NCBI RefSeq assembly: GCF_010093595.1
Contig: NW_022985445.1
Coordinates: 943,387-983,223 of the forward strand
Source of the DNA: Mytilinidion resinicola
Taxonomy: Eukaryota; Ascomycota; Dothideomycetes; Mytilinidiales; Mytilinidiaceae
Length of the DNA stretch: 39,837 nt
Direction: 5' to 3'
The translations under genes were made by a program, and so were the position numbers. The notes under the pieces are model-generated. The model was not told the DNA's origin. It saw only the letters and a list, made by a program, of their open reading frames with translations, and did no database searches. Positions 2,488-33,931 of this stretch are shown piece by piece (positions within the stretch are counted from its first letter, which is position 1; every line of letters begins with the position of its first letter).

Positions 2488-3452
2488 GAACGAGCTTAAT
2501 TACCACCCCCCCTTTATCTCCGTGTTATCCCCCTTTTCTTTTCCTACTAACCCCCCTATATATTTAGCCTAGCTTCTGCTTATAATAACTTTGTTCTACT
2601 AATTAGGTTATAAGCAATAGTAGTGTTAAATAACGGTCTTAATTTACTAATACAGTACCGGACCTTTCTACCGGATAAGCAGGCCTAACGGCGATACAGG
2701 GCTCTATTTCCTTAGTCCCCGACAGTTAGCCAGCCCTTAAAGATAGCCCTCTGTCTACTCCTAAGAAGGAGGCTGTTTATAGTAAAGGAACCGGTGCAGC
2801 AAGAGGATCTTCGGGTGTAAGACCTTAGTATAATAGTGTATACAGTGTTCCTTTTCATTAGCAATAAAGAGTTGGCTATCTACTATTAGAATAAGAATAA
2901 GCGATATATTTTTTTATTCTATTATCTATATATATATATAGATACAAATCTATTTATAGATCCTTTATTCCTTTATTCTAATAAAGAACTCTTTATTCTA
3001 ATAAAGGACTTATTATATATAAAGAGGCTTTATCTTAATAAAGAGACGTTAACTCTTTATTATAACAAAGACTACGTTCTAATAAAGAACGACTAAGGTA
3101 TATTAAAACCGCTACCTTGCTCCGTAAACTCGATAATCTTAACCAGTTAATATACTAATTAGTAATACAACAGCTATTTAAACCTTACTATTTCACCACG
3201 TGCCTTATATACCTTTATATCTAGGAGCTTTCCGCTTCTTTACTAGCTAGAGTAAATAGAGTAAATAGAGTATTATTGCATATATATAAATTCTTTCCGA
3301 TTTATAGCCTTTCCAATTTATATAAGCGAGTGAATATAATTAGTAGAACAAAATTATTACCAGCCGAAGCTAGGCTAAATATAGGGGGGATGGTAGGAAG
3401 AGAAAAGGGGGGTAATGCGGAGAGAAAGGGGGGGTGGTAATTAAGCTCGTCC
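2488..3452. mobile_element. Non-autonomous MULE-like element (D), about 0.6 kb, carrying a solo LTR
   Basis: Long terminal inverted repeats of about 115 bp begin GAACGAGCTTAATTACC at 2488 and, on the reverse strand, GGACGAGCTTAATTACC at 3452. Both contain three C-rich blocks. The element is flanked by an 8-bp duplication, TTAAAAAA (2480-2487) and TTAAGAAA (3453-3460), which differs by one G-to-A transition. It has no coding capacity. Removing the LTR at 2884-3219 and its duplicated target leaves about 624 bp. The ends resemble those of the transposase-bearing MULE at 21715-24550, so D was probably mobilised in trans by a relative of that transposase. Confidence 0.8.
2884..3219 (+). mobile_element. 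Solo LTR, family C (copy C1), inside element D
   Basis: The 336-bp segment begins TATTAGAATAAGAATAAGC and ends ACCTTTATA, consistent with TG...CA ends changed by RIP. A second copy is at 19177-19524. The flanks are TCTAC and TCTAG. The related element end at 1-300 carries the uninterrupted form GGCTATCTAGGCGCTTTCC (28-46), so the insertion junction is well supported. Internally it holds repeated CTTTATTCTAATAAAG-type palindromes and a TA/GATA microsatellite. Confidence 0.75.
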
Positions 3453-20587: not shown

Positions 20588-21050
20588 CGCTTGCCAAGTT
20601 AAGCTACGCTATTTTCTTACTTTATAGAGGCTCTTACTAATAGCTTATATAGCTAATATAAGCCTCAGCTACCTCCTATAGTATAGTATATCTAATCCTA
20701 TTTCCCTTTTTTATAAAGTTAATAATTTTTAAAGTCTAAAATAAGGAACTACTACTATATATACCTACGCATACACCAACTTAGACTTATTAATATACTA
20801 TATAGAATTTACTTTACTAGGACTCTTAGTTTTAATCTAGCTAATTTAGGGGTCTCAGATAGGCTAGATAATGCTGGTCTCTTTAGTCTACTTATATAGA
20901 GGTGGCTATTATTAATAATATTTTAAATTATAGGGTCGTTATTATTTAGGTTGGAATAATCTATTAGAAGCCCTGTGCTATATTGCTACTAGGTAGTAGT
21001 AGCCCATCCATATATTAATTCCTTTTATCCTCTTCTATCTCATTCTTAAT
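20588..21050. other. AT-rich decayed repeat remnant
   Basis: Strongly AT-rich with TAG-rich frames on both strands, as in RIP-treated repeats. No element could be named. It ends with the octamer TTCTTAAT (21043-21050), the left target copy of element F2. Confidence 0.4.
21043..21050. repeat. First copy of an 8-bp target duplication TTCTTAAT (others at 21707-21714 and 24551-24558)
   Basis: The identical octamer stands at the left edge of F2, exactly between F2 and the MULE, and at the right edge of the MULE. Each element taken alone is therefore flanked by a perfect 8-bp duplication, of a length usual for MULE-type transposition. Confidence 0.92.
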
Positions 21051-21218
21051 GGGGAGGGATATTGGCACACCCCCTAATCACTCCGCGCACACCCCCCTTC
21101 TTGTTTGATCTTCTGATTGGCTGGAGCGGCTCGGAGCTTCGTCCGGAGCTCTATTCTCACGTGCATTTGCACGTGTAGCCTTTCTTATTCACTTAGCCGT
21201 ACGTGAGCTCATATGTGA

Positions 21219-21388
21219 GGCTATACAAATCGGCATAGCTATACAGCCTCTCTATTTTACAGTGCATTCTTTCCGATTCGTGTGGCCTTACATATGAGCT
21301 CACGTACGGCTGTATATACGGCTGCACGAATTGGAAAGAATGCACCGTAGAACGGAGAGGCTGTATAGCTATGCCGATTCGTATGGCC
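21219..21388. repeat. Imperfect palindrome inside F2 (69-bp arms)
   Basis: The left arm 21219-21287 and right arm 21320-21388 are reverse complements with a few mismatches. Both contain GCATAGCTATAC, a CTCTCTATTTTAC-like stretch and CTTTCCGATTCGT (or its complement). They are separated by 32 bp, so the strand could fold into a hairpin. Confidence 0.85.
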
Positions 21389-21402
21389 TTATGTATAGCC
21401 TT

Positions 21403-21530
21403 ACGTACGAGCTCACGTACAAGCTTATTTACGAGCTCACGTACAAGCTTACATGTGAGCTCATGTACGAGCTCACGTACGAGCTCACGTACAAGCTCAC
21501 GTACAAGCTCACGTACGAGCTCACGTACGG
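21403..21530. repeat. Tandem array of 12-bp GAGCTCACGTAC units
   Basis: About ten copies of a 12-bp word occur with variants AAGCTCACGTAC and AAGCTTACATGT. Each unit joins two palindromes, GAGCTC and a GTAC/ACGT core, so the array is nearly self-complementary in either orientation. Open frames across it on both strands are only repeats of short peptides and are not taken as genes. Confidence 0.85.
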
Positions 21531-21933
21531 CCTCGCGTATAGCATCACGTGCAGAGAGACGTAAAGGTGAATGCCCAGAGGAAGCTCCGCGTTGCTCCGA
21601 GCCAATTAGAAGGTGGTGAGGCGCCAAGAAGGGGGGGGGGTACGTGCGTGGAGTGAAAAAGGGGGTGTGCGCGGAGTGATTAGGGGGTGTGCCAATATCC
21701 CTCCCCTTCTTAATGGAGCACCTTAGTTATCACCCCCCCTTTCTTTGCGTATCACCCCCCTTTTCTCTGCGTGTCACCCCCCCTATATTAGGCCTAGCTC
21801 CGGCCCGTATAAATATTGTTCCACCAATCAAACTCACCCGCTTGCCCGCTCGTGCTCAATTCGAATTTACATTACCTGCGCACTTACTCTCGATGCATCA
21901 ACACCACTTCCTCTACATCATCACCTCAACACT

Positions 21934-23912
21934 ATGCCCCTCCGGCCGCCCCCTTGGGGCCGCCACGCCTCCGTAGAGGATGGCATGAAGTCAATCAACA
22001 CTTGGGCCAAGCAAGAAGGATACGCCATAGTTAAATACAACAAAAAAATGGACAAGCGCATGCCCCCCCAGGTGCGCAAGGTGCTGGTTCGATGCGAGTG
22101 CGCAGGAGAGTATGAGCCAGCTAATAGGAAGCGCCGCACCCGTACAAAGAAGACCAATTGCCTATTTAAAGGGGCCCTCTCAAGAGATTTACTGCAAGGT
22201 GATTGGTTCTTTGAGGTTGAGGTCTATGCTCACAATCACGAGCCGTACAATCCTGAGGATGGAACTCCTATTGCGCACCGAGATCTCGATAAGGATACCA
22301 TCCGAACTATATACAATCAGCTCAACGGAGGCACGCCCGTAGGTGCTATCTTCAACAACCTCCTAGCTGAGGGCAAGGATGTGACGATGCAGGACCTATA
22401 CAACAAGAGATGGGAGTGGAAGAGAATAAAGCTTAAGGGGCTTACTCCAACTCAGGCCATACTTAAGGTGCTTGAGGAACACGGCAACGACGACCCGGAC
22501 GCTCATTACCACTACAAATACGAGCTAGATGAAGTAAACCGAGTCAAGTACCTATACTTCATGCACCCGGAGAGTGTTCGGATGTTCCAGAAGAATCCTG
22601 ATGTTGTTCTTCTTGATTGCACCTACAAGACAAATAAGTTCAAGATGCCGCTCCTCTATATCAACGGCGTCAACAACCAGGGCAGGAACTACGAGCTAGG
22701 CTATTGTTTTCTCCCAGGGGAGGAAGAAGAGGACTACATCTTTGCCGTGCGGGAGCTTTACCTAGTGTGCCAGCGCCTAGGCGTTTCACCAGGCGTTTTC
22801 ATCACGGATAAAGAGCTCGCACTCAAGAATGCACTGGCTAAGTTCTTTCCTCTTGTTCCTTAGATCCTGTGCAAGTGGCACGTGCAGAAGAACATCGCCA
22901 GCAAGGCTGTCACTGTTTGGAAGGATAAGGAGCAAGCATTAGCGGATACAATAGATCTAGAGGACCCAGCACGTGCCTCTTAAGTGCTAACAGTAGCTGA
23001 GATTGATGTTATTCAGAGAGATCGGAAGAGGTTTATCAACGAGCTTAACTTCTGCCTATCAAAACCTACAGAGGCTGAGTTTGTAGCCGCTTGGAACAAG
23101 ATTCAATCGGATTATGCACACAAGGAAGCCCTGGTCGACTACCTCACCGAAGAGTGGTGGCCTTTTCAACAGCAGATTGCGACGTACCATACGGGCCTTC
23201 TGCCGCACTTTGGCAACACTACAACCTCGCGGCTAGAGGGCTCAAACGGCAGTATTAAGTCCTATCTTCAGATCTCGACAGGCGACCTCTACGACGTAGT
23301 CACCCTGCTATCTCAATACATTCACCGCCAAGGTGTTGAGAGAAAGAATCAGCTTGGCCGGCAGCGTAGAGCTCCTCAGCATGAGGTTAGGATTCCTGAG
23401 TTTGCTGGGGTTCTTCGGCAGGTTACTGAGCAGGGCCTGAGGCTACTCGCTGCCCAAGTCAAGAAGGCCAAGAAGGACGATTTCAATCCTATTTGCAATG
23501 GAACATTCAGGGGGACATACGGCATGCCTTGCTGTCACGAAATACACCGAAAACTGTACGCTACAGCGACATCTACGTATACTGTTGTCCTGGAGGATGT
23601 TCATCAGCACTGGTGGTTCAATCGTCCCGTTCCAAACGAGGTAAACCTTCCTATCGATCCTCTCCTCCTCATCGAGGCTCCGGCAATTGTACAGCGTCGT
23701 AAAGGCAGGCCAACGGGCCCTGCTGCACCTCGTCAATCAACCCGTGCCCGTGGCCGTGGCCGTGGCCGTGCTCGTGCACCTGCTGATGCAACTCGACGTG
23801 ATCCATCTCAATTCGAAATTGTTGATCAACAAGCTCCGGCGCAGCGAGCACGACGGCGTGGTGGAGGGCCAGGATCACGTGGAGGAACGTCGCATCTCCG
23901 GCGAGCTCATAA
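21934..23912 (+). pseudogene. MULE/FAR1-type transposase with two in-frame stops, 3' end in the assembly gap
   Basis: The frame from ATG 21934 gives, in order: a FAR1-like zinc-binding N-terminus (VLVRCECAGEY ... HNHEP), and a DDE core with D228 in VVLLDCTYKTNKF, D292 in FITDKELALK, the LCKWHVQKN motif (C-x2-H) and E435 in SRLEGSNGSIKS. A SWIM-like finger CNGTFRGTYGMPCCHEIH and an Arg/Gly-rich AT-hook-like tail (RARGRGRGRARAP) follow. TAG at 22861 (residue 310, in VP*ILCKWH) and TAA at 22981 (residue 350) interrupt it. Both fit CAG or CAA to stop by C-to-T change. The frame stays open beyond each. An earlier ATG at 21745 lies within the terminal repeat and is unlikely to be used. As assembled it cannot make the full enzyme, but most of it is intact. 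Confidence 0.88.
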
Positions 23913-24287
23913 NNNNNNNNNNNNNNNNNNNNNNNNNNNNNNNNNNNNNNNNNNNNNNNNNNNNNNNNNNNNNNNNNNNNNNNNNNNNNNNNNNNNNNNN
24001 NNNNNNNNNNNNNNNNNNNNNNNNNNNNNNNNNNNNNNNNNNNNNNNNNNNNNNNNNNNNNNNNNNNNNNNNNNNNNNNNNNNNNNNNNNNNNNNNNNNN
24101 NNNNNNNNNNNNNNNNNNNNNNNNNNNNNNNNNNNNNNNNNNNNNNNNNNNNNNNNNNNNNNNNNNNNNNNNNNNNNNNNNNNNNNNNNNNNNNNNNNNN
24201 NNNNNNNNNNNNNNNNNNNNNNNNNNNNNNNNNNNNNNNNNNNNNNNNNNNNNNNNNNNNNNNNNNNNNNNNNNNNNNNNNNNNNNN
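23913..24287. other. Assembly gap (375 N)
   Basis: A run of N inside element E. It hides the C-terminus of the transposase and part of the right subterminal region. The gap follows a GC-rich Arg/Gly repeat and precedes tandem CTAGAGTAGA words. Confidence 0.99.
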
Positions 24288-24550
24288 GTAGAGTAGCTAG
24301 AGTAGAGTAGCTAGAGTAGATAGAGCGAATAGACTCCTATTGGCCTAGATGATGCAGCCTATAATACAGCCTTTCCGTTTTGTGATGCATACTCTCCATT
24401 TTACGCAGTCGACACGGAGGCAAGCGGGTGAGTTTGATTGGTGGAACAATATTTATACGGGCCGGAGCTAGGCCTAATATAGGGGGGGTGACACGCAGAG
24501 AAAAGGGGGGTGATACGCAAAGAAAGGGGGGGTGATAACTAAGGTGCTCC

Positions 24551-24876
24551 TTCTTAATAGGCTATTGTCTGCATCTATAGATTATACACCTCCTCTTATG
24601 CTCCCTTGTGCCAACTAGCATAATTACTGGCTGTGGTTAGCGCCCTGTAAAGTGAACTTTAACTCGCAAGTTTCTACTATCTACTCTACTCTGTGCCTTG
24701 GTATTAGAGATAGATAGCTCCTGATTATACACTTACTTTACTGGTTACCTTTAACCATCATGCTTAGCACCATGCGTAAAGTAATCAAAGCTAGTACTGT
24801 TATCCTTTTGTTTATTATTAAACCTTACAAATTCCGCTTGCTCCCGCTATGAATGTCTAATCCAAAAGTGCCCCCG
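24551..24876. other. Intergenic region at the right edge of the island
   Basis: Starts with the third TTCTTAAT copy (24551-24558), then ordinary moderately AT-rich sequence up to the stop codon of the next gene. No feature beyond a probable 3' untranslated region. Confidence 0.5.
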
Positions 24877-32460: not shown

Positions 32461-33931
32461 ATGGCAGCCTCGTTTCCGCCCCCGCCCGTGGACACAATTG
32501 GTACGCAACAACCCTCCCGACTCGCATTGCCCCGCCGTCCCGTACCTTAAGAATTGTACTGACCACTCAATTCCTTGTAGACTGGAACAATGTGGGCTTC
32601 AAAGTTCGAGAAGGTGAGCAGACGTCCTTGCCATTCCATACTTCGTACAGCCCCGAACACGCGACCTCCAAAAGGCGACCATGTCGACCCTCAATCCTTC
32701 AGTCACGGAATAGGATGAGCGACATTCGAGATGGAAAGACGGAGACAATAACATTGGAGCGGTAGCCTCTGAACACCTCAGGCTGACCAATTACCTCAGT
32801 CAATGGCCATGTCGAGTCCCACTACAGCGTCAAGTCTGGCAAATGGACTGAGCCCGAGTTCATCCAGGACCCTTTCCTCCGCATCCACGGCATGGCGCCG
32901 GGTCTCAACTACGGCCAGCAATGCTACGAAGGCATGAAAGCGTTTCGCTCTCCCACCAACGAAATCAACATCTTCCGAGCCGTCCAAAACGCAGAGCGCA
33001 TGCAACACTCGGCCTCCTACATATCCATCCCAGGTGTCCCGAGCGATCACTTTCTAAAAAGCATCCATCTGGCTGTTGGGTTGAACGCGGCTTTCGTGCC
33101 GCCGCATGAGACCGGCGCTGCCATGTATATTCGGCCTCTGCTATTCGGATCAAGCGCTCAGCTAGGGCTGAACCCGCCTGAGGAGTATACTTTCTGCGTG
33201 TATGTCCTGCCTACTGGCGTATACCACGGCACAAAACCCGTCGATGCGCTCATCCTAGAGTCATTCGACCGTGCCGCTCCTGAAGGAACTGGGTCAGCCA
33301 AAGTTGGAGGCAACTATGCTCCAGTTCTGAAGTGGAGCGAGAAGGCGCATCATGACGGCTACGGAATCACACTCCATTTAGACAGCAAGACTAGGAGTGA
33401 GATCGATGAGTTCTCCACGTCTGGATTCATCGGTGTGAAGAAAGACGGTGAATCTTACACACTGGTCGTACCGGACAGTAAGAACGTCATCAAGAGTGTC
33501 ACAGCAGACAGCATCTGCGAGATTGCGAAGTCTCTCGGCTGGAAGGTTGAAGCTCGGTCGGTAAGCATTGTCCTGTCTATCGAGCGATTTGTGAGCAGTC
33601 TAGTCAGATAAGCTGACACGCTAAGATTCCATACGCCGAACTGCCCTCCTTTTCTGAGGTTTTGGCTGCCGGTACCGCTGCTGCTCTTGTGCCAATCAAG
33701 TCCATCACTATGGAGTCGAAGGGAGACAAGTTCGTGTATCGCGACGGGTCTGACGAACTAGGCCCTGTCTGCGTCAAGCTGCTTACTACCCTCAAGGGCA
33801 TCCAACAAGGCAAGATCGACGATACCTTCGGCTGGTTGGGTAAGGTCAATGAACCTAAGGGATACTCAAATGGCTCTGCCACCAATGGAGACGCCTTGGA
33901 TGGACCCAACACAGTCGGCAGGCTGCCGTAA
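32461..33931 (+). CDS. Class IV PLP aminotransferase, branched-chain-amino-acid type (4 exons, 379 aa)
   Basis: Exons are 32461-32500, 32581-32613, 32800-33560 and 33626-33931. The fold is that of branched-chain aminotransferases: LRIHGMAPGLNYGQQCYEGM at the N-terminus, MYIRPLLFGSSAQLGL, the PLP-binding lysine in GTGSAKVGGNYAPVL, then DEFSTSGFIGV and a phosphate-binding stretch IKSVTADSICEIAKSLGWKV. The last exon contributes ELPSFSEVLAAGTAAALVPI, the conserved active-site wall. The enzyme should transfer the amino group between a branched-chain (or related) amino acid and 2-oxoglutarate. No mitochondrial presequence is evident, so a cytosolic or secondary-metabolism isoform is likely. Exon 2 is only 33 nt and intron 2 is 186 nt. 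I see no neighbouring synthase genes that would indicate a cluster. Confidence 0.9.

What the first reader, a model, noticed from the sequence alone, without database searches (positions are those of the whole stretch)
21043..24558. Two different DNA transposons inserted end to end, with three copies of the same 8-bp target word
Seen directly: TTCTTAAT, F2 (21051-21706), TTCTTAAT, MULE E (21715-24550), TTCTTAAT. Each element taken alone has a perfect 8-bp target duplication, and the middle copy is shared. Two insertions therefore hit the same octamer, the second using the duplication made by the first. F2 and E have different terminal sequences but both carry CACCCCC-rich blocks. This suggests a very strict target preference, or recognition of an existing element end as a landing site, rather than chance.
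Basis: seen in the sequence. Interest (0 to 1): 0.75.

Follow-up and report, generated by a model that had tools for sequence, protein, structure and literature searches.

The report
Two jumping genes reusing one target
Two related fungal jumping genes landed end to end in the same eight-letter DNA word, and a genome-wide count shows that such elements land within about 100 letters of each other far more often than chance, although the word itself is not special.

Summary
TTCTTAAT occurs three times, around F2 (21051-21706) and E (21715-24550), each with clean inverted repeats. The "strict target word" reading is refuted: 51 related elements with verified 8-bp duplications show 42 different octamers, alike only in A/T-richness (6.9 of 8, background 4.2); among them TTCTTAAT belongs to F2 and E alone.

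It is not an isolated coincidence either. Among 416 mapped element ends, 16 outward-facing neighbour pairs lie under 100 bp apart and one between 100 and 1000 bp. Shuffling positions by up to 3 kb gives 0.63 on average, never 16 in 2000 trials. An A/T-weighted model expects 0.1-0.2. Five of the 16 fall within the neighbour's duplication (offsets 0, 0, 1, 2, 4). Given this clustering, exact reuse is expected about once in 16.

F2 and E are two branches of one MULE (Mutator-like) group: same terminal plan, CACCCCC blocks at a 22-bp period, MULE transposases in both branches. Most likely two cut-and-paste insertions used one short A/T-rich hot spot, the second hitting the duplicated octamer. Attraction by the element end itself remains open. 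Plant MULE MITEs form similar clusters, but in microsatellites.

The parts
21043..21050 (+). target word copy 1, TTCTTAAT (outer left duplication of F2)
21051..21706 (.). F2: 656-bp non-coding element (MITE-like), TSD exact
   Evidence: aligned with eight other copies (91.4-98.6% identity)
21051..21099 (+). F2 left terminal inverted repeat; ACCCCC blocks at 21069 and 21091
   Evidence: block spacing
21658..21706 (-). F2 right terminal inverted repeat
21198..21409 (.). internal imperfect inverted repeat of F2 (97-nt arms, 81%)
21707..21714 (+). target word copy 2, TTCTTAAT, shared by F2 and E
21715..24550 (+). E: 2836-bp MULE, TSD exact
   Evidence: Pfam MULE
21715..21846 (+). E left terminal inverted repeat, 132 bp; ACCCCC blocks at 21732, 21754 and 21776
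24419..24550 (-). E right terminal inverted repeat
21745..22863 (+). open frame with MULE transposase domain (PF10551, E 4.7e-17); the frame ends at a stop here
22984..23912 (+). downstream open frame, probably the rest of the transposase (inference); no Pfam hit by itself
23913..24287 (.). masked stretch inside E (reads N)
24551..24558 (+). target word copy 3, TTCTTAAT (outer right duplication of E)

Best explanation
F2 and E are two members of one large MULE group in this fungus. One of them inserted by cut and paste into an A/T-rich octamer, duplicating it. The other later inserted into one of the two copies, duplicating it again, which leaves X-F2-X-E-X. The octamer is not a fixed recognition word: it only fits the group's A/T preference. 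The two met because these elements pile up in short (under 100 bp) A/T-rich hot spots in otherwise ordinary DNA; once one has landed, its duplicated A/T octamer is the best target nearby. Shown: letters, repeats, duplications, the A/T logo, the excess of neighbours under 100 bp, the common terminal plan. Inferred: cut-and-paste transposition, the order of events (E perhaps later, weak), and that the hot spot was there before the first element.
For: Structure. Target logo: 51 TSD-verified elements (0-1 mismatch) of 82 with both flanks read, 42 distinct octamers; mean 6.87 of 8 A/T in the 46 of these with 60-bp flanks, against 4.21 in 20512 background windows taken from the fetched loci and the window. 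Clustering: gaps under 100 bp in 16 pairs, expected 0.63 after jitter of up to 3 kb and 2.56 after up to 0.3 kb, 0 of 2000 trials reach 16 in either. The offsets of the 16 fit the A/T-weighted expectation (KS p 0.77; d=0 expected 0.93, observed 2, P 0.24). Interiors of the 11 gaps of 29 bp or more are more A/T-rich than flanks of lone elements (0.78 against 0.62 in 35 flanks; p 0.0009; two of the 11 are pure (TTA)n). F-type and E-type elements both carry a MULE transposase frame, 38% identical over 331 aa. Read by eye: none of the 16 pairs joins two ends of one TIR subfamily and no pair type repeats, so they look like independent insertions, not copies of one tandem unit. In 14 of the 16 pairs at least one member has a duplication with 0-1 mismatch, in 3 both members are exact (counted).
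Against: The measured A/T preference alone predicts only 0.12-0.22 close pairs, so the hot spots need a hidden cause (for instance open chromatin) that I could not see. Close pairs are F-F 14, F-E 2, E-E 0, fewer with E than random mixing gives (P about 0.012; the E list is incomplete), which a general hot spot does not predict. 6 of 22 pair members with both flanks read lack a matching duplication, so plain sequential cut and paste does not account for every member. Only one F2-E joint was found (exact pattern, control 2 against 9).
Confidence: 0.62

Rival explanations
1. The element end itself attracts the next insertion: transposase bound to the CACCCCC array of a resident end steers an incoming element into A/T-rich octamers within about 90 bp outside that end.
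For: The excess is confined to under 100 bp (16 pairs) with 1 pair in 100-1000 bp; the A/T-weighted model falls short about 70- to 130-fold; 5 of 16 newcomers fall within the 8 bp next to the resident (offsets 0,0,1,2,4); F-F pairs dominate; shared CACCCCC blocks at about 22 bp.
Against: Offsets fit plain A/T weighting with no extra peak at the end (KS p 0.77); gaps are unusually A/T-rich, as pre-existing islands would be; three of 16 pairs sit in poly-T or (TTA)n tracts.
Confidence: 0.27
2. Pure coincidence: two unrelated insertions into one octamer.
For: TTCTTAAT fits the A/T logo, and only one F2-E joint was found.
Against: Expected d=0 joints with A/T weighting are 0.007-0.013 for the whole genome, two were found, one of them in poly-T; 14 further close pairs.
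Confidence: 0.06
3. Strict sequence-specific target TTCTTAAT, as for site-specific transposons.
For: Three copies here.
Against: 42 distinct octamers in 51 verified duplications; among them this word only at F2 and E.
Confidence: 0.01
4. F2-X-E moved as one composite, or the array was made by tandem duplication.
For: None found; it would explain adjacency.
Against: The middle copy would match the outer ones only by chance; no pair type recurs among the 16 pairs (by eye), and one F2-E joint was found.
Confidence: 0.03

Closest known systems
SaTar elements, non-autonomous MULEs of guayule and rice (PMC5907723, passages seen)
   Same: MULE type, mixed-family arrays of intact un-nested elements joined by short spacers, many copies without matching TSD
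   Different: There the arrays are joined by microsatellites and the TSD-bearing members are said not to be in arrays; TSD 10 bp. Here 13 of 16 pairs lie outside pure simple repeats (by eye), 14 of 16 pairs have a member with an 8-bp TSD of 0-1 mismatch, and target octamers are shared or overlap
Ac-mMITEs of pineapple (PMC8449440, passages and section 8)
   Same: Adjacent un-nested insertions within 100 bp, no identical clusters, Mutator-derived
   Different: 46.1% of full-length copies clustered, mostly linked by (TA)n; the TSD-bearing Mutator-like copies stand alone there
MuTAnT of Medicago, and AhMITE of peanut as mentioned there (PMC4486113, passages seen)
   Same: MULEs; a passage names GGGG/CCCC as terminal nucleotides of the TIRs; AhMITEs use A/T-rich non-microsatellite sites
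   Different: 9-nt TSD and TA microsatellites in MuTAnT; the three passages seen say nothing on reuse of a TSD
Hop of Fusarium oxysporum (recalled; no paper on it opened)
   Same: fungal MULE with long TIRs (recalled)
   Different: not compared here

Membership tests
MULE (Mutator-like) DNA transposons - E | MULE transposase domain | tested here: met
   PF10551 E 4.7e-17 in 21748-22860; 18 database relatives, all listed with PF10551
MULE (Mutator-like) DNA transposons - E | TSD of 8-11 bp | tested here: met
   8 bp, exact at E; exact in 17 of 29 E-type copies read, 0-1 mismatch in 21 of 29
MULE (Mutator-like) DNA transposons - E | long terminal inverted repeats | tested here: met
   132 bp, 100%
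MULE (Mutator-like) DNA transposons - E | intact DDE catalytic triad and activity | not tested
   the frame is interrupted in the window copy and part is masked; no repair attempted
MULE-derived MITE - F2 | TIRs and TSD of the MULE type, no coding capacity | tested here: met
   49-bp TIR, exact 8-bp TSD; the one frame of 120 aa or more inside it is 144 aa, on the - strand, start TTG, made of the element's own repeats; not scanned for domains
MULE-derived MITE - F2 | autonomous partner with the same TIR | tested here: inconclusive
   An F-type element with a different 16-bp end (C2:1075906-1079080) holds a 455-aa MULE frame; no long element with F2's own end among the paired ends; unpaired ends were not followed
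Microsatellite-targeting SaTar / mt-MITE class | insertion into simple repeats | tested here: not met
   3 of 16 pairs in poly-T or (TTA)n; the rest in A/T-rich sequence that is not a pure simple repeat, judged by eye
hAT transposons (considered for the 8-bp TSD) | hAT transposase | tested here: not met
   only MULE and RNaseH-like ZSWIM domains found

The most novel reading that the evidence does not exclude
Resident element ends of this MULE group act as landing pads: transposase docked on the 22-bp-spaced CACCCCC array directs newcomers, also of sister subfamilies, into A/T-rich octamers within about 90 bp outside the end, so that fresh duplications are reused and mixed arrays grow from one founder.
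Probability: 0.25. Interest if true: 0.65.

Novelty: new variant of a known kind. Interest (0 to 1): 0.42.

Why it matters
It gives a genome-wide, countable case of transposons landing next to each other at a range of about 100 bp, mostly outside simple repeats. It separates two questions that are easily merged: sequence preference (weak, measured here) and short-range clustering (strong, cause unknown). That makes self-targeting against chromatin hot spots directly testable in a filamentous fungus.

Tried and rejected
Strict target word: rejected by 42 distinct octamers in 51 verified duplications. Composite transposition or tandem duplication: no recurring pair type among 16 (by eye). hAT membership: rejected by the transposase domain. 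Sequence preference as the full cause of clustering: insufficient in the A/T-weighted model (0.12-0.22 expected). A special peak exactly at the element end: not seen (KS p 0.77). C19:885035/885052 (gap 16) was dropped from the pair count, because the two flanking units are 1609 bp each and face each other, so it looks like a palindrome or an assembly product. Empty sites in other strains could not be looked for: no relatives of this genome are held. Jiang and Wessler 2001 on nested MITEs, seen only in a reference list, is not held. Paper searches: (no result); several lists were cut (for example 20 of 28 and 20 of 35). No listed title or abstract opening spoke of adjacent insertions of fungal MULEs or of reuse of a TSD outside microsatellites; apart from four papers searched for passages (one section) none was opened. 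That is a statement about these searches only.

Limits: the end list is incomplete. Of 308 exact F-type ends 304 were listed (in full, 100 of 101; three have a fifth/sixth letter that my sub-patterns did not cover), and 100 of 135 E-type ends. Twelve ends beyond the exact pattern were added by hand: eleven (up to 3 mismatches) and C1:2758258, which I already knew to be in a pair (a thirteenth, C22:529500, was already in the list). Two of the 16 pairs (C1 gap 9, C11 gap 83) rest on added ends; 14 do not. TSDs were read for 82 of 137 elements with both ends listed, chosen by availability and not at random; a few of these 82 join ends of different subfamilies and may not be single elements, which inflates the mismatch class. 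The background for the A/T model comes from the fetched loci and the window, not from random genome positions.
Full report
What is there. The window lies in a 47.1-Mb genome of 44 contigs. One coding piece of the window (32892-33608) is 98% identical, over 94% of its length, to a branched-chain aminotransferase of Lophium mytilinum, so the host is probably that fungus or a close relative (Mytilinidiales, Dothideomycetes).

What the elements are. E carries a MULE transposase domain (PF10551, E 4.7e-17), a 132-bp TIR and an 8-bp TSD. The window copy has an interrupted frame and a masked stretch. Against five other full-length copies, the C5 copy is 99.5% identical (12 substitutions in 2449 compared bases), while the other four differ at 277-489 positions, nearly all C to T or G to A, the pattern of repeat-induced point mutation (name recalled). 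So the window copy looks young and almost spared. F2 is 656 bp, non-coding, 91.4-98.6% identical to eight other copies aligned, and differs from their majority at 7 of 631 columns. By this crude measure E (0.5% from its nearest copy) may be the later arrival; this is weak.

F2 and E are related. The F2-type terminal pattern occurs at 308 places with 0 in the reversed control and breaks into many subfamilies by the first 16 bp. The E-type pattern, with up to 3 mismatches, gives 135 places, control 3. Where 86 bases inside the end were read: in 25 E-type ends the first ACCCCC block is at offset 17 in 24, and successive blocks are 22 bp apart in 31 of 33 intervals; in 61 F-type ends the first block is at offset 18 in 55, and 54 of the 68 intervals listed are 22 or 23 bp. 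An F-type element, C2:1075906-1079080, holds a 455-aa frame with a MULE domain (PF10551, E 8.2e-26) that is 38% identical to E's over 331 aa. So the two sit in one group with one terminal plan, though perhaps served by different transposases. F2's own autonomous partner was not found.

Target choice. Flanks were read for 82 of 137 elements with both ends listed. Duplications are exact in 17 of 29 E-type and 27 of 53 F-type copies; three or more mismatches in 6 of 29 and 21 of 53 (difference between the types p 0.09). In 51 copies with at most one mismatch there are 42 distinct octamers (both strands merged), and TTCTTAAT belongs to F2 and E alone. The symmetrised logo (46 sites) has A or T at the first two positions in 90 and 96%, weaker inside, and G/C-leaning bases at positions 2-4 outside. 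The octamer holds 6.87 A/T against 4.21 in 20512 background windows; the 60 bp around it are only slightly A/T-rich (0.588 against 0.526). Beyond about 100 bp the flanks are ordinary, 0.51-0.52 A/T (111 flanks at 100-150 bp, 56 at the farthest bin).

Neighbours. I placed 416 ends (316 F-type, 100 E-type) and measured gaps between a right end and the next left end. Seventeen are under 100 bp (8, 8, 9, 10, 12, 16, 29, 29, 29, 35, 43, 50, 56, 69, 83, 93, 96), one lies between 100 and 1000, seven between 1000 and 3000. I drop the gap of 16 (C19, facing units of equal length), leaving 16. Moving every unit at random by up to 3 kb gives 0.63 pairs on average, by up to 0.3 kb 2.56, and no trial of 2000 reaches 16. 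A gap of 8 + d means that the target octamer of the newcomer began d bases outside the resident: d = 0, 0, 1, 2, 4, 21, 21, 21, 27, 35, 42, 48, 61, 75, 85, 88. Independently, a junction pattern (facing GGGGGTG and CACCCCC, 30-60 bp between) gave 9 places against 2 in its reversed control; by eye five of the nine are two facing element ends 8-16 bp apart, C19 among them. In pairs, 16 of 22 members with both flanks read have a duplication with 0-1 mismatch and 6 do not.

The other exact case is C6:331445-333482: nine T, element, eight T, element, ten T. There a poly-T tract makes the identity cheap, so the window's pair is the only exact triple copy found in complex sequence. C21 shows a clean GTTAGTAA duplication around the first element with the newcomer's octamer starting two bases further; C1 shows CTAAGTAA with an offset of one, its second element lacking a matching duplication. 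C3 has three elements in one (TTA)n tract.

How far does sequence preference explain this? A logistic model on octamer and context A/T gives relative weights of 7.8 at d=0, 2.5 at 1-7, 2.1 at 8-30 and 1.05 at 31-88, averaged over 35 lone flanks. It predicts 0.12-0.22 close pairs in the whole genome (208-279 elements), against 16. Yet within the close pairs the offsets follow these weights (KS p 0.77; d=0 expected 0.93, observed 2; d under 8 expected 3.0, observed 5, P 0.17). The interiors of the 11 longer gaps are more A/T-rich than lone flanks (0.78 against 0.62, p 0.0009). So something brings elements within 100 bp of each other, and inside that range the A/T preference is enough to place the exact octamer; the duplicated word of the resident is simply the best one. 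The model was trained on few sites and cannot see chromatin.

Hot spot or landing pad. Pre-existing A/T-rich, perhaps nucleosome-poor, hot spots explain the short range, the A/T-rich gaps and the simple-repeat cases. Attraction by the resident end explains the short range, the reuse of duplications and the shortage of E in pairs (14 F-F, 2 F-E, 0 E-E; P 0.012 if ends mixed freely; the E list is incomplete). Neither is excluded; I favour hot spots at about 0.6 to 0.27.

What is known. Passages of PMC5907723 describe guayule and rice MULEs assembled into arrays through microsatellites, often without TSDs, while TSD-bearing members are not in arrays. PMC8449440 (passages and section 8) reports pineapple Mutator-derived MITEs with 46.1% in clusters of neighbours within 100 bp, un-nested and never identical, mostly linked by (TA)n. 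PMC4486113 (passages) describes TA-microsatellite MULEs with 9-nt TSDs and mentions peanut MITEs in A/T-rich non-microsatellite DNA. The case here is thus a variant: clustering of MULE elements, most with clean TSDs, in A/T-rich sequence of a fungus that is mostly not a simple repeat, with reuse or overlap of target octamers.

Verdict. Observation confirmed; strict target rejected; single coincidence made unlikely; double insertion in a clustered MULE group supported; the cause of the clustering open.

Noticed in passing
27 of 82 related elements with both flanks read, e.g. C15:1238216-1238901, C11:1282984-1283647: No matching duplication (3 or more mismatches) although the flanking octamers are A/T-rich like real targets (0.84). 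Suggests exchange or collapse between copies, or insertions without a TSD as reported for SaTars; a few may be wrongly paired ends.
   Followed up: partly
G000 C34:28559-29126: Flanking octamers TTTACTTA and TAAGTAAA are exact reverse complements, as if one flank had been inverted; the only such case in 82.
   Followed up: no
G000 C19:883427-886660: Two 1609-bp units with different TIR subfamilies at their two ends face each other across 16 bp: a large palindrome or an assembly product (from coordinates; the arms were not read in full).
   Followed up: no
E copies on C16, C39 (two) and C9:48540: 277-489 differences each from the window copy, nearly all C-to-T/G-to-A, typical of repeat-induced point mutation, while the window and C5 copies differ at 12 sites only.
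   Followed up: partly
G000 C3:451740-453100: Three elements of three subfamilies in one (TTA)n tract.
   Followed up: partly
window 2488-3452 and an end at about 300: Further E-type elements of the GGACGAGC subfamily in an A/T-rich stretch; the first has a TSD with one mismatch.
   Followed up: no
G000 C29:525792-526776: An F-type element that seems to sit inside the terminal repeat of an E-type element (read from the matched letters), one of few signs of insertion inside an element end.
   Followed up: no
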